From Emticicia aquatilis (GTDB taxonomy: Bacteria > Bacteroidota > Bacteroidia > Cytophagales > Spirosomataceae), in NCBI RefSeq assembly GCF_014644295.1, contig NZ_BMKK01000001.1, forward strand, positions 62,001-126,000: 64,000 nt of DNA, read 5' to 3'. Positions 39,900-52,503 of this stretch are shown here, piece after piece. Position 1 is the stretch's first letter; every line of letters begins with the position of its first letter. The notes beneath the pieces are model-generated. The model did not search any database and was not told the origin of the DNA. It saw only the letters and a list, made by a program, of their open reading frames with translations. The translations under genes were made by a program, and so were the position numbers.

Positions 39900-41222
39900 A
39901 TGATTCAATTAGAAACAATTTGTGCGTTGGCTACGCCACAAGGCATTGGAGCAATCGGGGTAATCCGTGTTTCGGGCGAGCGTACATTTGAGATTGTCAA
40001 TAAAATTTTCAAGGGAAAAGACCTAACGAAAGTAGATTCCCACACGATTCATTTCGGTACGATTCGAGATGGCGGCGTGATTGTCGATGAAGTTTTGATA
40101 GCAGTTTTTAAAACTCCCAAAAGTTTTACGAAAGAAGATGTCGTAGAAATTTCTTGTCACGGTAGCGACTATATAATAAGGTATATTCTGAAACTTCTGC
40201 TCCAAAACGGTTGCCGAATGGCACAGGCAGGAGAGTTTACGCAACGTGCATTTTTAAACGGTCAATTTGATTTAGTACAAGCCGAAGCCGTAGCAGATTT
40301 GATTGCCGCTGACTCCGAAGCAGCCCATAAAACTGCCATGAACTTGATGCGTGGAGGTTTCTCGAATCAATTGAAGGCATTGCGTGAAGAACTGATTCAT
40401 TTTGCAAGTTTGGTTGAATTAGAATTAGATTTTGGCGAAGAAGACGTAGAATTTGCAGAAAGAGATGACTTAAAATCTTTAATATTGAAAATTCAAAATT
40501 TTCTGAAAAATCTAATAGATTCTTTTGATGCGGGAAATGTGATAAAAGAAGGTCTTCCTGTGGCGATAATTGGCCCGCCCAATGCAGGAAAATCTACTTT
40601 ACTCAATGTCTTGTTGAATGAAGAAAGGGCAATCGTAACCGAAATTGCTGGCACAACCCGTGATGTGATTGAAGATGTGCTTTTTATTGAAGGGATAAAG
40701 TTTAGATTTATTGATACCGCAGGAATCAGAGAGACAAAAGATGTTGTAGAATCAATTGGTATCGAACGCTCGAAAGATGCCATGCGTAGAGCAGAAATTG
40801 TGCTATTGCTGTCGGATAGTCAAGATTCAAATGAAGATTTTATTTCAGAATTTGATGAAGATAAGATTATTAGAGTAAGAAATAAGATTGATTTGGTGGC
40901 AAAAGCAGAAAATGTAGATGGCTTGGGTATTTCAGCAAAAAACAACATCGGTATTGATGAACTCAAAGCTGCAATCGTAGCTAAAGCAAAAATGAAAAAA
41001 CAAGCTGATACAATGCTGACGAATTTACGCCACTATGAACACCTTGTAAAAGCCAACGAAGCATTGAGTGAAGTATTGAATGGTTTAGATTTAGGTATAA
41101 CAGGCGATTTCTTGGCTCAAGATATTCGTCTTTCGTTGCATCATTTGGGTGAGATTACGGGAGCTATCTCTTCCGATGATTTACTGGCCAATATATTTAG
41201 TAAATTTTGCATTGGAAAGTAA
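39900..41222 (+). CDS. mnmE: tRNA uridine-5-carboxymethylaminomethyl(34) synthesis GTPase MnmE
   Basis: 440 residues. The N-terminal tetrahydrofolate-binding domain covers about 1-115 (ICALATPQGIGAIGVIRVSG). The helical domain holds an inserted G domain with GPPNAGKS (about 226-233), TTRD, DTAG (about 271) and NKID. The C-terminus is FCIGK, with the essential Cys. With MnmG it makes the cmnm5 modification of U34 in certain tRNAs. The last 16 bases before the stop are the core of the integration site of the downstream island, yet the protein C-terminus is preserved. Confidence 0.97.
   Translation: MIQLETICALATPQGIGAIGVIRVSGERTFEIVNKIFKGKDLTKVDSHTIHFGTIRDGGVIVDEVLIAVFKTPKSFTKEDVVEISCHGSDYIIRYILKLLLQNGCRMAQAGEFTQRAFLNGQFDLVQAEAVADLIAADSEAAHKTAMNLMRGGFSNQLKALREELIHFASLVELELDFGEEDVEFAERDDLKSLILKIQNFLKNLIDSFDAGNVIKEGLPVAIIGPPNAGKSTLLNVLLNEERAIVTEIAGTTRDVIEDVLFIEGIKFRFIDTAGIRETKDVVESIGIERSKDAMRRAEIVLLLSDSQDSNEDFISEFDEDKIIRVRNKIDLVAKAENVDGLGISAKNNIGIDELKAAIVAKAKMKKQADTMLTNLRHYEHLVKANEALSEVLNGLDLGITGDFLAQDIRLSLHHLGEITGAISSDDLLANIFSKFCIGK
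41205..41220 (+). repeat. attL core in the 3' end of mnmE
   Basis: TTTTGCATTGGAAAGT, identical to 52488-52503. Upstream, CAATATATT is also shared at slightly shifted spacing. Both copies encode FCIGK followed by a stop (TAA here, TGA in the right copy), so integration rebuilds the gene end. Confidence 0.85.
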
Positions 41223-41390: not shown

Positions 41391-42473
41391 ATGAATGTAA
41401 TAATTAGAGAAAGAGCTTTAAAAGGTAATAGAAAGAGTTTGTTTCTGGATGTATATGTAAATGGAAAGCAAACCCAAGAAACATTAGGTCTTTACTTAGA
41501 AGATGACAAGAATAATCCATTAGTAAAACAGAAAAATAAAGAGACATTAAGATTAGCAGACCAACTGAAGTTAAAAAGATTAACAGAAATCCAACATTTA
41601 GGCTTAGGGTTTCGTGTTCCTCAAAAGAATAATAAAACATTTTCCGAATATTTCAATGATTTAGTTTCAGAGAGAATAAAAACAGGTAAAAACCATGAAA
41701 CTTGGATAAGTGTTAATAAACACCTCAATGATTTTAAAAAACCAATTTTATTTGGCGAACTTACAGAAGATTTTTTAGAAACGTTTAGAGCATATCTCTT
41801 AAAAAAGGTACACCAAAACTCCGCAAGTAATTACTTCAATAAATTAAAAGCCTCTATACACAGAGCATATAGAGAAAAATTAATCTATGAAAACCCTGCT
41901 GATAGGGTAACCGCACCAAGATTAGTAGAAACTCATAGAGAGTTTTTAACAAATGAAGAGTTAAATAAATTAGTAGAAGAGCCTTGCAAAAACAACTTAC
42001 TTAAAAAGGCATTTATATTTAGCTGTCTTACAGGTTTAAGGTGGTCAGACGTCAATAATTTAAAATGGAAAAATATTCAAATTATTGATAACATTCCTCA
42101 CATAGTATATACACAAAAAAAGACTAAAAACTCTGAAACACTCCCAATATCTGCTAATGCTTTGGAATTATTAGGAGAAAGACAGAAGGACGAAGATAGA
42201 GCTTTTAAAGGGTTAAAATATAGTGCATACAACAATTCAACTTTAGCTATATGGGTTTTGAATGTAGGTATAAAAAAACATATTACTTTCCATTGTGCAA
42301 GACATACTAATGCAATGTTATTGCTCAATAATGGAGTAGATATTTATACTGTCTCTGAGATGTTGGGTCATAGGGATTTAAAAACAACTCAGATTTATGC
42401 TAAAATAATGAATGAAACAAAAATAAAAGCATTATCTAAGCTACCTAAAATTGAACTAAAAAATTTAACTTGA
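41391..42473 (+). CDS. Tyrosine recombinase/integrase of the island
   Basis: 360 residues. An N-terminal arm-binding-like part (NVIIRERALKGNRKSLFLDV) and a SAM-like core-binding domain (about 80-190) precede the catalytic domain. Catalytic residues visible: Arg in TGLRWSD, His and Arg in HCARHTNA, His in MLGHRDL and the Tyr nucleophile in TTQIYAKI. Bacteroidota ICE/phage type. It sits 170 bp inside attL, pointing into the island, and should catalyse integration at the mnmE core. Confidence 0.95.
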   Translation: MNVIIRERALKGNRKSLFLDVYVNGKQTQETLGLYLEDDKNNPLVKQKNKETLRLADQLKLKRLTEIQHLGLGFRVPQKNNKTFSEYFNDLVSERIKTGKNHETWISVNKHLNDFKKPILFGELTEDFLETFRAYLLKKVHQNSASNYFNKLKASIHRAYREKLIYENPADRVTAPRLVETHREFLTNEELNKLVEEPCKNNLLKKAFIFSCLTGLRWSDVNNLKWKNIQIIDNIPHIVYTQKKTKNSETLPISANALELLGERQKDEDRAFKGLKYSAYNNSTLAIWVLNVGIKKHITFHCARHTNAMLLLNNGVDIYTVSEMLGHRDLKTTQIYAKIMNETKIKALSKLPKIELKNLT

Positions 42474-45394: not shown

Positions 45395-45940
45395 TTAGAA
45401 GGCATTTGTATAGTCTGAATACCCTAAATCTGAAAGCCTAATACTCATAGCATGTTGGCTAACTTCAAATTTTCTTGCAAGCTCATCTATTAGAGATAAA
45501 ATATTATTTTTATTAATACTGTTTTCAATAGCTTCTTTTATTAATTTCTTAGGCATCAATAAAGCTGCTGCAAAACTATTGGCTTCTTTTTCTTTTAAGA
45601 TTTCACCTCTGGAAGATTTTTCGTCTCTATTATAAATAGCAATAACATTAGATTCATTTTTATCAATAAAAAGGGGGTTCTCATTTTTATGTAGTATAAA
45701 ATGACCTAATTCGTGAGCTATAGTAAATCTTTTTCGGTTAATATGATGTTTCATATTAACTCCAATTATAGATTCCTTATCTTTAATAGCCAAAAAACCC
45801 GAAATTTCATCTTCTATATCAAGTTCAGAAATTGGTAATTTTAAATATTTTGCACACTCCTCAACTTTTATTGGATATGAAAATGTGTTTGAATCACGCA
45901 GAAGCCCTTCTGCTTTTAATTCAATAGCTTGATTTATCAT
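45395..45940 (-). CDS. ImmA/IrrE-family metallopeptidase (CapP-like)
   Basis: 181 residues. Zinc site HELGH at 76-80 (RFTIAHELGH) and the downstream EKEANSFAAALLMP segment that gives the third ligand; KEVSQHAMSIRL-type C-terminal helices follow (VSQHAMSIRLSDLG). ImmA/IrrE enzymes cut XRE repressors and so relieve repression after DNA damage or other signals. The gene follows the XRE gene by 20 bp in the same operon and faces away from the CBASS operon. That arrangement is like the CapH/CapP pair described for some CBASS loci; the equivalence is inferred. Confidence 0.85.
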   Translation of the reverse strand: MINQAIELKAEGLLRDSNTFSYPIKVEECAKYLKLPISELDIEDEISGFLAIKDKESIIGVNMKHHINRKRFTIAHELGHFILHKNENPLFIDKNESNVIAIYNRDEKSSRGEILKEKEANSFAAALLMPKKLIKEAIENSINKNNILSLIDELARKFEVSQHAMSIRLSDLGYSDYTNAF

Positions 45941-45960: not shown

Positions 45961-46305
45961 TTATCTATTAATAAAATCATTTAAGTATGATTTTAGATTT
46001 TTTGTATCATCTATATTAGCATCATTTAGAGCCTCACGCAATTTGAAGTTGTCTGAAACACTATAAAGTTCATTAGTTGATGGTATTAAAAGATTGATAT
46101 TGACATTAATAATTATTGAAATGTCATGAAGTAAATGAAGACTAATTTGTCTTTTGCCTGATAAAATATTTGATAAAGTAGACCTACTCTTAACATCTTC
46201 TAATTTTTCTAAAAGCTGAGATTGCTTAATATTGTTTTGTTTCATATACCTAACAATATTTTCTCCTATTAGCATATAGAATTGCTTCTTTTGCTCTTCT
46301 TTCAT
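45961..46305 (-). CDS. XRE-family repressor (CapH-like)
   Basis: 114 residues. HTH: ENIVRYMKQNNIKQSQLLEK, RSTLSNILSGKRQISLHLLH, NVNINLLIPST; a short C-terminal tail (about 75-114) with acidic residues could be the cleavage and dimerisation region. First gene of the operon with the ImmA-like peptidase. It probably represses its own promoter and possibly the divergent CBASS promoter region. It may equally be the maintenance repressor of the island itself. Confidence 0.85.
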   Translation of the reverse strand: MKEEQKKQFYMLIGENIVRYMKQNNIKQSQLLEKLEDVKSRSTLSNILSGKRQISLHLLHDISIIINVNINLLIPSTNELYSVSDNFKLREALNDANIDDTKNLKSYLNDFINR

Positions 46306-46340
46306 ATTTCTTATTAATTTCTTTTATTGAAATATTTGCA

Positions 46341-46372
46341 CAAATCTAAACTATAAATAACACTAATACAAA
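46341..46372 (-). promoter_or_regulatory. Promoter of the XRE/ImmA operon
   Basis: Minus strand: TTTG (46372-46369), 20 nt, TAGATTTG (46348-46341); perfect match to the Bacteroidota consensus, 36 nt before ATG 46305. Confidence 0.7.
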
Positions 46373-46512
46373 TTTATCACTTTGGTAACTCGCTTTTTTA
46401 ATCAACTTATGTACAATATTTGAAAACAAATAAAAAAAATGAAAACATTCTTGCTTTGGAAAACTTATTTGTTTTTCTTTGCTAATGAATTAATATTAAA
46501 ACATATAAAATT

Positions 46513-46689
46513 ATGGCAACTAATAAACCATTTGGCGATAATGCCAGAAAAGGGTCAATTAAGGAACGTTCACAGGTTTTGAATACCAAAACTGAACTTT
46601 GGGTTAAAAGAGATTCTACCACAGGTAGATTTATGGATGTGAAGACATCTTCAAACGAACCATTCAAAGGGGTTCGCAAAGAAAAGTAG
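46513..46689 (+). CDS. 58-residue conserved-looking basic protein
   Basis: ATG 46513 to TAG 46689. Composition and pattern: KPFGDNARKGSIKERSQVLN, TELWVKRDSTTGRFMDVKTS, ending PFKGVRKEK. The ARKGSIKxRSQ, KRDxxTGRFMD and PFKGVRKE words look like a conserved small-protein family, but I cannot name a function. It is the first gene on the plus strand after the divergent repressor, so it may be co-induced with the CBASS operon. Antisense frames in this span are shadows. Confidence 0.7.
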   Translation: MATNKPFGDNARKGSIKERSQVLNTKTELWVKRDSTTGRFMDVKTSSNEPFKGVRKEK

Positions 46690-46766
46690 TTACTACTGGA
46701 AGTAACCGTCTAAGCTTTTAGGTCGATAAGTTAAAAGCTATTTTTAACCATTCTATTTTATGTAAG

Positions 46767-46922
46767 ATGAATTTAATAACAAATGATTCATTAGACTTAG
46801 GATTCGGAAACTATTCAATAAAAGCAAGTGGAGAAAATGCTAGAATAATTTCTATTGGAATCTTTATCTTTTTAGTAGCGGCTGGTTTTGCATATTTAGC
46901 AAAGCAGTCAAATACAAACTGA
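46767..46922 (+). CDS. 51-residue single-pass membrane protein
   Basis: ATG 46767 to TGA 46922. The N-terminal half is polar (MNLITNDSLDLGFGNYSIKA); residues about 26-46 form one membrane helix (ARIISIGIFIFLVAAGFAYL), then KQSNTN. It lies between the 58-residue gene and the CD-NTase gene and is followed by a perfect terminator. It could be an accessory to the membrane effector or a leader gene; no homology is recognised. Confidence 0.6.
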   Translation: MNLITNDSLDLGFGNYSIKASGENARIISIGIFIFLVAAGFAYLAKQSNTN

Positions 46923-46925
46923 GAA

Positions 46926-46952
46926 AATGGGGCATAGTCCCCATTATTTTTT
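46926..46952 (+). terminator. Terminator/attenuator directly before the CD-NTase gene
   Basis: AATGGGG pairs with CCCCATT around CATAGT, followed by ATTTTTT. It starts 4 bp after the small membrane-protein gene and ends 20 bp before the CD-NTase ATG, leaving no room for another promoter between, so CBASS transcripts from upstream must pass it. Confidence 0.85.
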
Positions 46953-46971
46953 AAACTAAACTCCAATAAAC

Positions 46972-47952
46972 ATGAATAAAAGTGAACATTTAGACTCCGT
47001 AATAAAAACTCACCAAATTACAAAAGAGGAAAAACTTCTTAACAAATTCAGAGAAAGGAATAAAGAAGTCAAAGACGATTTATTTGAACATTACAAAGGG
47101 AGTATTTACAATCCTTTTAATTCGGGTTCGTATGCTAAAAATACGGCTATAAATACAAAGTTCGATTTTGATTTAATTGCTCCATTTAAAAGATATGCTT
47201 TTGGCACAAAAGGAACTCTCAAGGAAATGTACGAAGATGTTTACGATTTTCTTTATGAGAAATATAAAGATGTAGCAAAAGTAAAAAAACAAAAAGTGTC
47301 AATCGGAATTGAATTTTATGCAGATTCAGAAAATGATATTGTAAAAATTGATGTTACTCCTGGTAGAGAACTGAACGAAAAACAATATATAGAAGATAGT
47401 AAACTAAACCTATATGTCTATTCCAGATATGGAAAATTTGATGCTGGAAGTGAAAGAATTCAGACAAATATTCAGGCTCAAATAGATAGCATTAGAAATA
47501 GAGCTACTACCGAAAAAGATTCTATCAGAAAAATTATCAGACTTTTAAAGGTTTGGAAAAAGACGAAATTCGATTATCCTACAAAATCATATTTCTTGGA
47601 ATTAATAACAATTAAGGCTTTTGATAATAAAACTATAGCGGGTAATCTTTGGGATAAACTGAAAACAGTTTTAGAGTATATAAAAGATGAAGTAACAAAA
47701 GACAGCTTTACTCTAAAAGATAAAGGCAATAGTTCAAACGACTTAGCCGATACTTTAACTGAATCTGAAAAAAGAACACTTTCAAATGATATGAAAAATA
47801 TACTTGATAGAATTGAAGAAAATGATGAGAATATAAAAACATATTTTCCCGAAAATGCTAAGTTTAAAGAAGATAAAAAAGAAGAAAATAAATACCAAGT
47901 AAAAGGTAGTGGTTTTTTCACTATTCCACCAAAAAACGAAAGATTTGGATAA
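46972..47952 (+). CDS. CBASS CD-NTase (cGAS/DncV-like cyclic oligonucleotide synthase)
   Basis: 326 residues of the SMODS/nucleotidyltransferase fold. Active-site motif GS (residues 52-53) in SGSYAKNTAI, the acidic pair D65/D67 in KFDFDLIAPF and the third acid D127 in VKIDVTP are all present. A helical C-terminal half (IRKIIRLLKVWKK, YPTKSYFLELITIKAF) follows. It would make a cyclic di- or trinucleotide on phage infection; the product cannot be read from the sequence. It ends 3 bp before Cap2, and the C-terminal tail (VKGSGFFTIPPKNERFG) is the part that Cap2 conjugates to a target in type II systems. Confidence 0.92.
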   Translation: MNKSEHLDSVIKTHQITKEEKLLNKFRERNKEVKDDLFEHYKGSIYNPFNSGSYAKNTAINTKFDFDLIAPFKRYAFGTKGTLKEMYEDVYDFLYEKYKDVAKVKKQKVSIGIEFYADSENDIVKIDVTPGRELNEKQYIEDSKLNLYVYSRYGKFDAGSERIQTNIQAQIDSIRNRATTEKDSIRKIIRLLKVWKKTKFDYPTKSYFLELITIKAFDNKTIAGNLWDKLKTVLEYIKDEVTKDSFTLKDKGNSSNDLADTLTESEKRTLSNDMKNILDRIEENDENIKTYFPENAKFKEDKKEENKYQVKGSGFFTIPPKNERFG

Positions 47953-47955
47953 TTA

Positions 47956-49635
47956 ATGGAAGATAGACTACATAAAATTATAGGATATGTCTCTGAACTT
48001 AAAGATGTTTCAATTGTAGATACTTTTGAGATAACTAACGATTTAGATATAAAAGGTGCTATTTCCATTAAATTACCTGATAATCAAGAATCATTAATTT
48101 TTGAAGTAAGAATACTACCAGAATATCCATTAAAAACAGGAAATTCTGAATCAATTACTTTTATTAATATTGGCTTATTAAAATATAAGCACATTATGAA
48201 AAGTGGTTCTATCTGTATTCACACTTCACATTGTACTGATTTAAGAAAAAAGATTGAGATTGACTTTAATTCATTAAAAAGATGGATTTGGGAGTATTAC
48301 ATAAATGGTAAAGAAGATAAACATTATGAACATCTTATACTAAATCCGTCACCAATTAAAACAGCATATTATTCTTATTTATTTACAGAAGTGAGTCATT
48401 CTTTTAATAAAGGTGATTTTGGATATTTTGAATATTCGCTGATGAGTGAAGGGAGCTATTATGGAAATAAAATATATAATAATGTTGTCCAAGAATTTAA
48501 AACAAAATACCAAAAAAGCATTATTCAGTGTCAATGGGGAATTCAAATAAAAAGTCTTAGACGAGTAAGTAGTAATCATGGAATATACATATATATAGAA
48601 ACGCCACCAGCTAATTTTGAAAAATTTGCGTTTGAAACATGGAAAGAATTAGAACCACTAATTAGTCAAGATTTTCTTAAATTTTTATATGATTTTGAAG
48701 TCTCAAATAAAAACAATAGAGGAGTAAATATTCCTTTATTGTTAGGATATAAGATAACTGATAATGAAATACATTGGCAAACGGCTAATTTAGAAATTGG
48801 TAATTTTCCAATTTATCACAAAAAAGAAAATCAAAAATATATAGGATATTTTGATGATAGAAATATCGAATGGGGAATTACAAAAAACTGTTCCTATAAA
48901 TATTTCTTTGGTCGTGGAAAAATGGAGGATAAAATAAGTCAAGGACGAATTTTAATTATAGGAGTTGGAGCCATTGGAAGTATGGTGGCTACAACATTAG
49001 CAAGAGGAGGTTGTACTAAAATAGATGTTGTTGATTTTGATGTAAAAGAGCCTGAAAATGTTTGTAGAGCCGAATACTCATTTCTAACAGGAATAAACGA
49101 TAAAGTAACAGATATTTCAAATTATTTACACTCAATATCTCCTTTTATAGATGTAAAAATAATACAAAAAGGTGGGCTTTTTAATTCTATTTTAAAAATT
49201 CAAGATTGGGAAAAATTTGAAATTCAAATTCATGAAACAGAGAAGAAAGAGTTTTTTAATCAATATGATTTAATTTTTGATTGCTCAACAGATAATGATT
49301 TAATGTTTGTTTTAAATCAATTAGAACTACACAATTTAATTTCAATGGCTATAACAAATAAGGCAAAAAGCTTAGTTTGTTCAACAGAAATCAAAAGTTA
49401 TGATTGGGTTATAAATCAATTTGAAAAGATACTTGACAATGATATTGAAGACCTACATTATCCTACTGGTTGTTGGAGTCCAACCTTTAAAGCATCTTAT
49501 AACGATATAAGTGTGTTAGTTCAATATGCCTTAAAACATATTAATTTAAGACTTTCACAAGATATATCACTAAGAAACTTTGTTGTAGAAACTAATACTG
49601 ATAATGAGTTAAATATTAAACTAAAAGAATTTTGA
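47956..49635 (+). CDS. cap2: CBASS Cap2, E2-E1 fusion ubiquitin-transfer-like enzyme
   Basis: 559 residues. E2-like N-terminal domain with catalytic Cys87 in SGSICIHTSH (about 1-150), a linker domain (about 155-310), then an E1/ThiF adenylation domain with the nucleotide loop GVGAIG (336-341), VDFDVKEPENVCRAEY and the catalytic Cys506 in TGCWSPTF. Cap2 joins the CD-NTase C-terminus to a cell component and primes cyclic nucleotide synthesis (known for type II CBASS). All key residues are present. Start ATG 47956; stop overlaps cap3. Confidence 0.93.
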   Translation: MEDRLHKIIGYVSELKDVSIVDTFEITNDLDIKGAISIKLPDNQESLIFEVRILPEYPLKTGNSESITFINIGLLKYKHIMKSGSICIHTSHCTDLRKKIEIDFNSLKRWIWEYYINGKEDKHYEHLILNPSPIKTAYYSYLFTEVSHSFNKGDFGYFEYSLMSEGSYYGNKIYNNVVQEFKTKYQKSIIQCQWGIQIKSLRRVSSNHGIYIYIETPPANFEKFAFETWKELEPLISQDFLKFLYDFEVSNKNNRGVNIPLLLGYKITDNEIHWQTANLEIGNFPIYHKKENQKYIGYFDDRNIEWGITKNCSYKYFFGRGKMEDKISQGRILIIGVGAIGSMVATTLARGGCTKIDVVDFDVKEPENVCRAEYSFLTGINDKVTDISNYLHSISPFIDVKIIQKGGLFNSILKIQDWEKFEIQIHETEKKEFFNQYDLIFDCSTDNDLMFVLNQLELHNLISMAITNKAKSLVCSTEIKSYDWVINQFEKILDNDIEDLHYPTGCWSPTFKASYNDISVLVQYALKHINLRLSQDISLRNFVVETNTDNELNIKLKEF

Positions 49636-50108
49636 TTTTAACAAATATAGAAATAGGACTAAGTATAGAAATTGACGATAAATTGGTAGGTAATCTTATT
49701 TATATCGGCAAGAAACACTATCCGAATGAGTTTGGGGGTTTTCTTATCGGTAATTATTCAGATGATTTTAAGAAATTAAATATTACAGATACTATTTTAC
49801 CAAATAGATATAAATCAACTCCATTTTTATTTGAAAGAGAAAATATAGGAGTAGACGAACAATTTGAAAAGTTTTATAAAGAAAACCCTCAAAAATTTTA
49901 TGTTGGGGAATGGCATACACACCCCAATAACCTACCTATTCCAAGTAATATGGATATTAAAGCCATGAATAATATTACTAATTCTAAAGAAGTGGCTATT
50001 CAAAATCCTATATTCTTAATAATTGGGTATAATAAAATTAAAACAGAACTTGGTTTTTACATTATTTTTAAAAATAAAATATATAAATATGAAACAGTTA
50101 ATAAATAA
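49632..50108 (+). CDS. cap3: CBASS Cap3, JAMM/MPN isopeptidase
   Basis: 158 residues. JAMM motif complete: Glu33 in NEFGGFLIG, His95 and His97 in EWHTHP, Ser105 and Asp108 in PSNMD. Cap3 removes the CD-NTase conjugate made by Cap2. No ATG is available near the start; translation must begin at TTG 49632, which overlaps the Cap2 stop as TTGA, so it is coupled to Cap2. The 3' end overlaps the effector gene by 20 bp. Confidence 0.92.
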   Translation: MILTNIEIGLSIEIDDKLVGNLIYIGKKHYPNEFGGFLIGNYSDDFKKLNITDTILPNRYKSTPFLFERENIGVDEQFEKFYKENPQKFYVGEWHTHPNNLPIPSNMDIKAMNNITNSKEVAIQNPIFLIIGYNKIKTELGFYIIFKNKIYKYETVNK

Positions 50109-50835
50109 AATTATTGGAGTTTTGGTATTGTCAATCTTTACTGTTACTTACAGTTTGGGGCAGAAGGATAGCACGAAAGCTAAGTTAGAAAAAATTGATT
50201 TTAGAATAGAAAAAGTAGAGGGTTTTCAAGAAATAACAAAACAAGGATTAGATAATAACTTCAAACAACTAGAGAACAAAATTAATGACGATTATTCTTT
50301 ATTAAAATACTTAGGTTGGATAGGTTTAGGTTTAAATCTTATTGTTTTAATCGGTGGTTTATGGAAATACAAAGAGTATGTAGAAAAAAAACTAACTGAA
50401 AAGTTTGATAAAATTATTACACAAAAAGAAGCTAATATATTGGAGATTTTAGACAAACAAGACATAGAAAAACAAATTGTTAATACAAAGAAAATTCTTG
50501 TTCTTTCTTCAAAAAATGCCAGTGATATTTTTATAAGAAAGTTTTTTAGAGCTATGGGATTTCCTGTAAATAATGTAAATTTTGAAAAGGTAGATTCATT
50601 TCAAAATTTTGGAAACTATGATTTAATTTTTGCAAATAATGAAGACAATACTTTAGATATTAATTTGATTCAAGAATTTTTTCAAAAAAGTAATAATAAA
50701 ACAGTTTTGTTTTTCTTTGGTAGTCAATATCCAAGAGGAACAAGTGAATCTGATAGAATGAATTTAGCAAATAGTCGAACACAGATTTATGGAAACCTTA
50801 TAAACTTGCTAAGATACCAAGAGGTTTTAAAATAA
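50089..50835 (+). CDS. CBASS membrane effector: signal/TM, periplasmic coiled coil, TM, cytoplasmic Rossmann-like domain
   Basis: 248 residues from ATG 50089. An earlier in-frame ATG (50023) lies inside cap3 and would spoil the signal helix. N-terminal helix with cleavage-like site (LVLSIFTVTYSLGQ, 11-25), coiled coil (about 28-68), TM helix (about 72-93, YLGWIGLGLNLIVLIGGLW), charged coiled coil (95-130), then an alpha/beta domain (134-248) with alternating strands KILVLSS, YDLIFANN and KTVLFFFG. The last resembles receiver- or NARF/TIR-like Rossmann folds without a clear catalytic set. By position it is the cell-killing effector; the C-terminal domain would sense the nucleotide and the membrane part would act. 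Confidence 0.8.
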   Translation: MKQLINKIIGVLVLSIFTVTYSLGQKDSTKAKLEKIDFRIEKVEGFQEITKQGLDNNFKQLENKINDDYSLLKYLGWIGLGLNLIVLIGGLWKYKEYVEKKLTEKFDKIITQKEANILEILDKQDIEKQIVNTKKILVLSSKNASDIFIRKFFRAMGFPVNNVNFEKVDSFQNFGNYDLIFANNEDNTLDINLIQEFFQKSNNKTVLFFFGSQYPRGTSESDRMNLANSRTQIYGNLINLLRYQEVLK

Positions 50836-51152: not shown

Positions 51153-52055
51153 TCATTTATTAATTTTAATATCTATTACTTCGTTTATTGAATCAGATTC
51201 AAGATTATCACCAATAATAAATCTATATACTCCATTTTTATTAAATATTAATTCAGGCTTACTTTCACCAGCTTTTGTTCCTTTAAAAGTAGCTGTATTA
51301 ATAATTGTACTTTCTAAATTTTCAAAACCATTAGGAGTTATAGTTGATTCGACAAAACCATCATTTCCAGAATAAACAACATAAAAGAAATTATTAGAAG
51401 GGTCAACTATTCCAAACTCCTTTCCATGAGGTATTTTTAATTTTAATAAAAATAATTCACCATGATTAATTTCAGTAGGATACTTTAAGAAAATACCATC
51501 AGTACTTTTAGAAGATGTTTGCTTTTCAACCTCAGATTTTTTTTCACCTGTTTTTTCCTGTTTTTTCACATTTTCTTTCACGAATGGTACAAATCCTTCA
51601 ACTACCTCTTGTCCTTCTTTTATATAGGATAAAATCAAGGTTTTATCGGTTAATTCCTTAACTTCATATCTTTCTTTTTTATTATTCAAGGTAATAATGA
51701 TAGTTCCCAATCCATCAAACTCCCAACTTCCTGTTTGAGTTAATAAAACTGAAAGCCCATCTTCTGAATTACTAATCGTATAATTGCCATTTCCCTCAAA
51801 TTCAAATATCGAAGTTTCCATCATTTTAAAAACTCCTTGTCCCATTGCTCCTGCTAATTGTTCAGTTAAACTTGAACTCTGAGAAAGTTCAGCTAATCTA
51901 TCTTTCTTTTCATTTATGGTTTTCGGGCTATAAATCCATTTCTTACAAAGTCGTTTAATCTTTGTTTCCTTACTAACACAAGAACTAAAACAGAATGGCA
52001 AAAAGATAAAAAGCAAAATTTGAAGTAATACCAGATTTGATTTAGAAGATAGCAT
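51153..52055 (-). CDS. Island-encoded lipoprotein with lipocalin-like domain
   Basis: 300 residues from ATG 52055. The frame is open to 52154, but that start lies in the large hairpin. Lipoprotein signal LLFIFLPFCFSSC with Cys about 23. Residues 30-165 fit a lipocalin-like small beta-barrel (CKKWIYSP, FEFEGNGNYTI, GSWEFDGLGTIIITLNNKKE). A Lys/Glu linker (about 170-200) and a second beta domain (about 205-300) follow. Function unknown; an exported cargo protein that could act at the cell surface (for instance in exclusion) is only a guess. Confidence 0.7.
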   Translation of the reverse strand: MLSSKSNLVLLQILLFIFLPFCFSSCVSKETKIKRLCKKWIYSPKTINEKKDRLAELSQSSSLTEQLAGAMGQGVFKMMETSIFEFEGNGNYTISNSEDGLSVLLTQTGSWEFDGLGTIIITLNNKKERYEVKELTDKTLILSYIKEGQEVVEGFVPFVKENVKKQEKTGEKKSEVEKQTSSKSTDGIFLKYPTEINHGELFLLKLKIPHGKEFGIVDPSNNFFYVVYSGNDGFVESTITPNGFENLESTIINTATFKGTKAGESKPELIFNKNGVYRFIIGDNLESDSINEVIDIKINK

Positions 52056-52098
52056 GAATTGAGATATTAAATAAAAAGCATGAACAATTACATTTACT

Positions 52099-52216
52099 TG
52101 TATTCTGAGGCTCTGGTAAACCTTACAAACAAAGCAAAGTAACGTCCATGCCATGCACAGACGTTTTGGCTTTACTTCCCTGTTTGTAATAGAAACTTAC
52201 CAGATTTCAGAATACA
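52099..52216. repeat. Large imperfect inverted repeat (118 nt)
   Basis: Nested complementary arms: TGTATTCTG with CAGAATACA, TCTGGTAA with TTACCAGA, TACAAACA with TGTTTGTA, AAGTAA with TTACTT and CGTC with GACG, loop CATGCCATGCACA. Small bulges interrupt the stem. It is upstream of the lipoprotein gene on its strand. Candidates: replication origin or nick site for the Rep-like protein, a recombination hairpin, or a MITE. Confidence 0.75.
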
Positions 52217-52487: not shown

Positions 52488-52503
52488 TTTTGCATTGGAA
52501 AGT
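52488..52503 (+). repeat. attR core
   Basis: TTTTGCATTGGAAAGT, identical to the mnmE 3' copy at 41205-41220 and followed by G where the left has A. This gives an FCIGK-TGA remnant of an mnmE end. Confidence 0.85.

What the first reader, a model, noticed from the sequence alone, without database searches (positions are those of the whole stretch)
46972..50835. Complete type II CBASS operon on an mnmE island, with an effector I cannot assign
CD-NTase (GS, D65/D67/D127), Cap2 (C87, GVGAIG, C506), Cap3 (E33, H95, H97, S105, D108) and a membrane protein are packed with 3-bp gaps and overlaps. All catalytic residues are intact, so the system should be functional. Sequence shows the motifs; the anti-phage role follows from known CBASS biology; activity in this host is inferred.
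Basis: partly seen in the sequence, partly recalled or inferred. Interest (0 to 1): 0.8.

Follow-up and report, generated by a model that had tools for sequence, protein, structure and literature searches.

The report
Type II CBASS with NARF membrane effector
This is an intact-looking bacterial antiviral signalling operon on a small mobile island, and its unassigned last gene belongs to a membrane-protein family that is also found inside type III CRISPR operons.

Summary
Window 46972-50835 encodes a CD-NTase, Cap2 (E1-E2), Cap3 (JAMM) and a membrane protein in one tight operon with the named catalytic residues in place. It lies on an 11.3-kb integrase island in the 3' end of mnmE, with 16-bp flanking repeats and an empty site in 5 of 10 relatives.

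The effector can be assigned. From ATG 50089 it has a signal-like hydrophobic segment, a helical stretch, a TM helix and a cytosolic NARF domain (Pfam PF20299, 9.6e-20) with a receiver-like predicted fold. Of 16 followed TM-NARF loci, 9 adjoin a CD-NTase, 6 lie in Cas10-Csm (type III-A-like) CRISPR operons and 1 is truncated. CBASS and CRISPR NARF profiles align over the domain (99.5%, 7.5e-23). Best explanation: an infection-induced cyclic oligonucleotide, perhaps a trinucleotide, binds NARF and drives membrane disruption; product, binding and killing are inferred.

CBASS is known; the effector makes this a poorly characterised variant. The link may extend to the predicted CRISPR effector Cam2, whose sequence I could not obtain.

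The parts
46972..47952 (+). CD-NTase (cyclic oligonucleotide synthase), ends in ...NERFG
   Evidence: PADLOC cyclase PDLC00803 2.6e-75; SMODS 9e-06; nearest solved relative CdnC 6p80 5e-05; GS, D65, D67, D127
47956..49635 (+). Cap2, E1-E2 conjugating enzyme
   Evidence: PADLOC E1-E2 PDLC00852 2.9e-206; ThiF 1.4e-17; PDB Cap2 7to3 1.2e-08, C506 aligned to an Ala of the solved chain
49632..50108 (+). Cap3, JAMM/JAB isopeptidase (TTG start inferred)
   Evidence: PADLOC JAB PDLC00890 2.4e-53; Prok-JAB 8e-13; E33, H95, H97, S105, D108
50089..50835 (+). TM-NARF effector: signal-like segment (residues 4-22), helical stretch, TM about 71-89, cytosolic NARF domain about 134-245
   Evidence: PF20299 NARF 9.6e-20; PADLOC Mem_03 1e-08; hydropathy; AF2 models
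45395..45940 (-). CapP-like M78 metallopeptidase (HELGH)
   Evidence: PADLOC capP 3.5e-34; Peptidase_M78 8.8e-22; PDB CapP 7t5t 5.5e-04; HELGH
45961..46305 (-). CapH-like HTH repressor
   Evidence: HTH_3 6.5e-07; homologue beside the CapP homologue in L013, 3e-08
46926..46945 (+). terminator-like hairpin just before the CD-NTase
   Evidence: consensus scan only; 3 terminator-like sites in 46200-47100 (two of them overlapping here) against a mean of 0.5 in shuffles
41205..41220 (+). left flanking 16-bp repeat, at the 3' end of mnmE
   Evidence: exact repeat
52488..52503 (+). right flanking 16-bp repeat
   Evidence: exact repeat; 0 of 2000 shuffles reach 16 bp
41391..42473 (+). tyrosine integrase of the island
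   Evidence: Phage_integrase 6.6e-24

Best explanation
A type II CBASS operon whose effector is a membrane protein with a NARF domain. Cap2 conjugates, and Cap3 releases, the CD-NTase C-terminus (...RFG), which sets how ready the enzyme is. On infection the CD-NTase makes a cyclic oligonucleotide, perhaps a cyclic trinucleotide. The messenger is bound by the cytosolic NARF domain, which is predicted to fold like a receiver domain, and this orders or opens the TM and periplasmic helices so that the inner membrane is breached and the infected cell stops growing or dies. The divergent HTH/M78 pair probably represses the operon until DNA damage activates the protease. Shown here: gene content, residues, domain families and genomic association. 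Predicted: membrane architecture and fold. Inferred: messenger identity, binding, membrane breach, regulation.
For: Families and residues. TM-NARF genes are next to a cyclic-nucleotide synthase in 15 of 16 followed loci: CD-NTase in 9, Cas10 in 6. The 6 Cas10s keep GGDD (6 of 6). NARF passes Pfam's cut-off in 4 of the 6 type III effectors, and a CBASS profile (7 rows) and a CRISPR profile (5 rows) align at 99.5%, 7.5e-23. The CD-NTase of L033, and by 60-75% identity its kin in the other E2-only loci, is a relative of the cAAG synthases (7ljm, 1.7e-100); the window's nearest bacterial solved relative is CdnC. Hydrophobic segments: two in 10 of 14 effectors, one in 4 of 14. Membrane effectors opened by cyclic nucleotides have a precedent: CRISPR Cap1 (PMC12642688; outline, part 1 of 7 and discussion seen). 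An M78 gene lies within about 1.4 kb of 6 of 9 TM-NARF CBASS operons.
Against: No ligand, product or toxicity data exist here. The CD-NTase is divergent and its product cannot be read from sequence; a 2-row profile hit human OAS2 (1.1e-06) just above CdnC (4e-06). AF2 confidence is moderate (domain alone: mean pLDDT 72.8, pTM 0.63; full length: 57.8, 0.42), and no Foldseek hit in the PDB reaches 1e-3. In the second-look list receivers are tied (Z within 1) with unrelated Rossmann proteins. Sequence support for a receiver relation is weak (hhalign 10.9%). Topology rests on a crude hydropathy scan. NARF falls below Pfam's cut-off in some CBASS members too (L005 18.9, L035 18.8).
Confidence: 0.78

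Rival explanations
1. Panoptes-like inverted logic: the messenger holds the NARF effector off, and loss of messenger (phage sponges) releases it.
For: Panoptes does this with a different membrane effector (passages of PMC12657218 and PMC12657230).
Against: Cap2/Cap3 or an E2-like partner accompany the CD-NTase in 9 of 9 CBASS loci, which fits a regulated synthase rather than a constitutive one. In the type III loci the synthase is Cas10, which is triggered by target RNA (introduction of PMC12642688).
Confidence: 0.1
2. The NARF domain is not the sensor but a protein-interaction or receiver-type module; the membrane protein is an accessory and something else is the effector.
For: The predicted fold is receiver-like and says nothing about nucleotide binding. 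Proteins with an EAD11-like N-terminus and, by eye, NARF-like tails lie near two type III loci, so related domains may serve in other assemblies.
Against: It is the only protein of the window's four-gene operon without an assigned enzymatic role, and no second effector candidate is in that operon.
Confidence: 0.12
3. The operon is decayed or silent on this island.
For: Terminator-like hairpin directly before the CD-NTase; no expression data.
Against: All four frames are open and the named active-site residues are kept.
Confidence: 0.08

Closest known systems
Type II CBASS (CD-NTase, Cap2, Cap3, effector)
   Same: gene content, E1-E2 and JAMM partners, catalytic residues
   Different: divergent CD-NTase; the effector's only PADLOC 2023 match is a type III CRISPR model, not a CBASS effector model
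Cam2 of type III CRISPR (predicted effector, PMC11229360, passages read)
   Same: N-terminal TM part plus C-terminal receiver-like domain; type III loci; proposed there to be cA3-activated
   Different: described for CRISPR; I could not obtain a Cam2 sequence, so identity with TM-NARF is untested
PADLOC Mem_03 (PDLC01157), membrane protein of type III operons
   Same: matches the window effector (1e-08) and type III L015 (1.1e-08) about equally; also CBASS L028 (3.6e-06)
   Different: described as 2TM with a possible diverged CARF in type III operons; no match to CBASS L005 in the same scan
Cap14/Cap15/Cap16 (CBASS) and CRISPR Cap1, Cam1, Csx23
   Same: membrane helices plus a cytosolic nucleotide sensor (passages)
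   Different: Cap15, Cap1, Cam1 and Csx23 sensors are described as beta-barrel, CARF-like, CARF and a unique domain, not NARF; Cap14 and Cap16 sensors were not looked up
CapH/CapP
   Same: HTH + M78 protease next to an immune operon
   Different: divergent here, with two small ORFs (58 and 51 aa) between the pair and the operon; regulation not tested

Membership tests
Type II CBASS | CD-NTase with GS and catalytic acidic residues | tested here: met
   GS 52-53, D65, D67, D127; also kept in the L028 homologue
Type II CBASS | Cap2 with E2 Cys, ATP-binding GxGxxG and E1 Cys | tested here: met
Type II CBASS | Cap3 with JAMM motif | tested here: met
Type II CBASS | effector activated by the messenger; phage defence | not testable with these tools
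   needs biochemistry and plating
NARF (PF20299) | score over Pfam's cut-off (25 bits) | tested here: met
   71.4 bits, 74.3
Cam2 | N-terminal TM helices plus C-terminal receiver-like domain | tested here: inconclusive
   TM by hydropathy; AF2 domain, VIA Z 9.5 to receiver 4qpj_D (rmsd 2.6, 100 aligned), 9.2 to 3n53_A (2.3, 95), tied with some unrelated Rossmann folds; no Foldseek hit under 1e-3
Cam2 | sequence relation to the published Cam2 proteins | not tested
   no Cam2 sequence could be obtained
Cam2 | found in type III CRISPR loci | tested here: inconclusive
   homologues lie in Cas10-Csm loci (6 of 16 followed), the window protein itself in CBASS
CapH/CapP | HTH + M78 (HExxH) pair next to the immune operon | tested here: met
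CapH/CapP | protease activated by ssDNA cleaves the repressor and derepresses the operon | not testable with these tools
   property taken from passages of PMC13373217

The most novel reading that the evidence does not exclude
TM-NARF proteins, including the predicted CRISPR effector Cam2, form one family of pseudo-receiver membrane effectors gated by cyclic trinucleotides and exchanged between CBASS and type III CRISPR, making the receiver fold a third Rossmann-type second-messenger sensor beside CARF and SAVED.
Probability: 0.4. Interest if true: 0.72.

Novelty: new variant of a known kind. Interest (0 to 1): 0.52.

Why it matters
It assigns the effector of a CBASS operon for which the PADLOC models hold no CBASS effector match, and ties it by sequence to membrane proteins of type III CRISPR operons. 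That turns two separate 'unknown membrane protein' problems into one testable question: does the NARF/receiver-like domain bind a cyclic oligonucleotide and open the membrane? It also points to CBASS loci with a tractable partner (relatives of the solved cAAG synthase) in which the ligand can be tested first.

Tried and rejected
Effector as an unassignable membrane protein: rejected, it is NARF. Longer effector start (TTG 50023): set aside for ATG 50089, which gives a signal-like N-terminus. Viral relatives: none in 3 viral-contig scans (effector alone; Cap2; effector alignment); none in phage records for the effector. Cap2 and CD-NTase in plasmids gave only distant relatives (30 records and 3 records, all under 60% identity), not followed. 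Receiver relation by sequence: hhalign against two REC domains gave 10.9% and E 0.0028, not convincing. By fold, about 40 of the 50 rows shown are response regulators or receivers by my reading of their titles; the rest include pilus proteins, B12-binding mutases, ITPK1, TIR-STING and an uncharacterised Rossmann protein, some with Z within 1 of the top rows. No CARF or SAVED chain is named among those 50 rows; this excludes nothing. Tree of 14 NARF domains: CBASS and CRISPR rows are mixed (3 label changes), but only 1 of 11 inner branches is well supported and one origin is not ruled out, so it does not show exchange. Rows dropped: five weaker hits (G655, G706, G755; G1015, G1067) not followed; L058 rejected as an unrelated protein in a housekeeping region; of three sub-cut-off Pfam hits, L002 falls on a REC domain, L003 and L004 were not examined. 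L030 is the weakest member: no Pfam hit, 3.7e-6 with profile A1 mainly in the helical part, 7e-07 to the L028 effector over 205 residues. My script label 'Csm4_L015' is a misnomer: that gene matches the Cas6-like gene of L029. Papers: 0 with NARF and CBASS, 0 with the full name of NARF; of 16 papers holding two of four terms, NARF occurs in one, unrelated; Cam2 + CRISPR + REC domain: PMC11229360 and an unrelated plant review; CBASS + effector + response regulator + transmembrane: 7 papers, of which by listing only PMC11229360 deals with such an effector; none. The library is open-access only. Small-ORF conservation used wrong frames and is void; searches give the right frames, conservation was not retested.
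Full report
What is there. Four co-directional genes occupy 46972-50835: CD-NTase, Cap2, Cap3 and a membrane protein. Spacing is 3 bp, then overlaps of 4 and 20 bp. PADLOC models match the first three strongly: cyclase 2.6e-75, E1-E2 2.9e-206, JAB 2.4e-53. In the alignment to solved Cap2 (7to3) C506 falls on an alanine, which I recall to be the mutated E1 cysteine. The CD-NTase is divergent: SMODS scores 26.4 bits against a cut-off of 26.5 (28.6 in the genome search), and the NCBIfam cyclase cut-offs are not met.

Island. An exact 16-bp repeat lies at 41205-41220, in the end of mnmE, and at 52488-52503; 0 of 2000 shuffles of the right end reach 16 bp. A tyrosine integrase (41391-42473, Phage_integrase 6.6e-24) follows mnmE. 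GC is 24-30% in the 1-kb windows from 41 to 53 kb, against 35-40% in the neighbouring kilobases. In 5 of 10 same-genus relatives mnmE lies within about 1.5 kb of the gene that borders the island on the right; in the other 5 mnmE was not within the flank held.

The effector. From ATG 50089 the protein has 248 residues with hydrophobic segments at 4-22 and 71-89. The first reads like a signal sequence, so the mature protein may have one TM helix, with a helical stretch outside and the NARF domain inside; this topology is inferred. Pfam NARF (PF20299, 'Nucleotidyltransferase-Associated Rossmannoid Fold') matches at 9.6e-20. The only PADLOC match is Mem_03, a membrane protein of type III CRISPR operons (1e-08). 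The own genome has one NARF match and one SMODS match, both here.

Relatives. A two-row profile gave matches (E up to 1e-3) in 6 of 222 genomes of the family and 12 of 390 of the order; a ten-row domain profile (E up to 1e-4) gave 6 of 395 of the class and 2 of 395 of the phylum; these sets overlap, and each count includes the window's own genome. A scan of a collection of 84,980 species' genomes gave 6 loci, 5 of them already seen; one of 72,556 plasmids, of Spirosoma oryzicola, matched. I followed 16 distinct TM-NARF loci, the window included. Nine adjoin a CD-NTase: six with an E2-like partner only (L005, L012, L013, L025, L026, L031), and three with Cap2 and Cap3 (window, L027, and L028 where they are fused). 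Six lie in Cas10-Csm operons (L015, L029, L030, L055, L056, L057), with repeat arrays seen in L029 and L030. PADLOC was run on the Cas10 of three of these and the Csm3 of one; the other cas genes rest on BLAST to those and on reading the ORFs. One locus (L014) holds a truncated gene beside IetAS-type genes, and no CD-NTase or Cas10 match was found there. Five weak hits were not followed, and one (L058) was false. All six Cas10s keep GGDD, and a crude search finds no HD pair in the first 120 residues of five of six.

One family across two systems. NARF passes the Pfam cut-off in four of the six CRISPR effectors (L029 33.4, L055 26.8, L056 27.0, L057 33.5 bits; L015 17.8 below; L030 none). Some CBASS members are also below it: L005 18.9, L035, the same locus as L027, 18.8. 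A CBASS profile (7 rows) and a CRISPR profile (5 rows, without L030) align over nearly the whole domain, 99.5%, 7.5e-23. A tree mixes the two groups but is poorly supported.

Fold. AF2 on the domain with seven sequences gives mean pLDDT 72.8, pTM 0.63, order helix-b1-a-b2-a-b3-a-b4-a. The second-look aligner puts receiver and pseudo-receiver domains on top: 4qpj_D Z 9.5, rmsd 2.6, 100 aligned; 3n53_A Z 9.2, 2.3, 95; AmiR 1qo0_D Z 9.1, 3.1, 111. Unrelated Rossmann proteins are tied with them (for instance 4r3u_C Z 8.7), and no Foldseek hit is under 1e-3. There is no acidic pair directly after strand 1 (KKILVLSSKNAS), as I recall receivers to have, so phosphorylation is unlikely. The architecture resembles Cam2, described as TM helices plus receiver-like domain in 26 type III loci and proposed to be cA3-activated (passages of PMC11229360). 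I could not test identity with Cam2.

Likely messenger. The CD-NTase of L033 is close to the cAAG synthases (7ljm, 1.7e-100), and those of the other E2-only loci and of L027 are its kin (60-75% to the Spirosoma enzyme). The window's CD-NTase is nearest to CdnC among solved structures (5e-05), followed by two nucleotidyltransferases (6p8u, 6p82); a two-row profile hits human OAS2 (1.1e-06) and then CdnC (4e-06). That CdnC makes cA3 is recalled. A cyclic trinucleotide is my favoured guess, at about even odds. CD-NTase tails differ with the partner...RFG with separate Cap2 and Cap3 (window, L027)...YA with the fused form (L028), other endings with the E2-like partner alone (5 loci printed). Conjugation of a C-terminal alanine, reversed by Cap3, is shown for B. 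cereus CBASS (passages of PMC11153139).

Regulation. A divergent HTH gene (45961-46305) and M78 gene (45395-45940, HELGH) match CapH/CapP: capP 3.5e-34, solved CapP 7t5t 5.5e-04. M78 genes adjoin 6 of 9 TM-NARF CBASS loci (window, L005 fused to an HTH and in the same direction, L013, L025, L026, L031; no match in the stretch held of L012, L027, L028). A CapH match by BLAST was seen only in L013. ssDNA-activated CapP cleaves the repressor (passages of PMC13373217). A terminator-like hairpin lies just before the CD-NTase.

Mechanism and standing. Shown: content, residues, families, associations. Predicted: membrane segments, fold. Inferred: product, binding, membrane damage, control. Membrane effectors opened by cyclic nucleotides have a structural precedent in CRISPR Cap1 (part 1 of 7 of the text and the discussion seen). 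Inverted signalling is known from Panoptes (passages) and is the main mechanistic rival. CBASS is a known kind; this is a variant by its effector. Pfam's name for NARF suggests that its curators knew a nucleotidyltransferase link; the link to membrane proteins of type III CRISPR was not found in my searches, which cover open-access papers only.

Noticed in passing
L056:9539-10264 (-), L057:545-1279 (-): Proteins with an EAD11-like N-terminus (1.4e-05 and 9.5e-06, both just under Pfam's cut-off) and, by eye, a NARF-like C-terminal motif, in or near type III loci that also hold a TM-NARF gene.
   Followed up: partly
L057:59-529 (+): Fragment matching the C-terminal part of Cap2 (37%, 3.6e-16) near the start of the stretch held, next to a type III operon: possibly a CBASS beside the CRISPR locus.
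   Followed up: no
L014:4239-8404: Truncated 210-aa TM-NARF gene beside an IetS-type subtilase and an AAA ATPase, with no CD-NTase or Cas10 match.
   Followed up: partly
window 46513-46689 and 46767-46922: Two small ORFs (58 and 51 aa, the second with a hydrophobic segment by eye) between the CapH/CapP-like pair and the CD-NTase, followed by a terminator-like hairpin.
   Followed up: partly
window 51153-52154 (-): Island protein with a weak Lipocalin_4 match (0.0018, under the cut-off), function unknown.
   Followed up: no
L015:9651-9978: Four tandem copies of an 82-nt unit upstream of the TM-NARF gene of a type III locus, unlike a CRISPR array.
   Followed up: no
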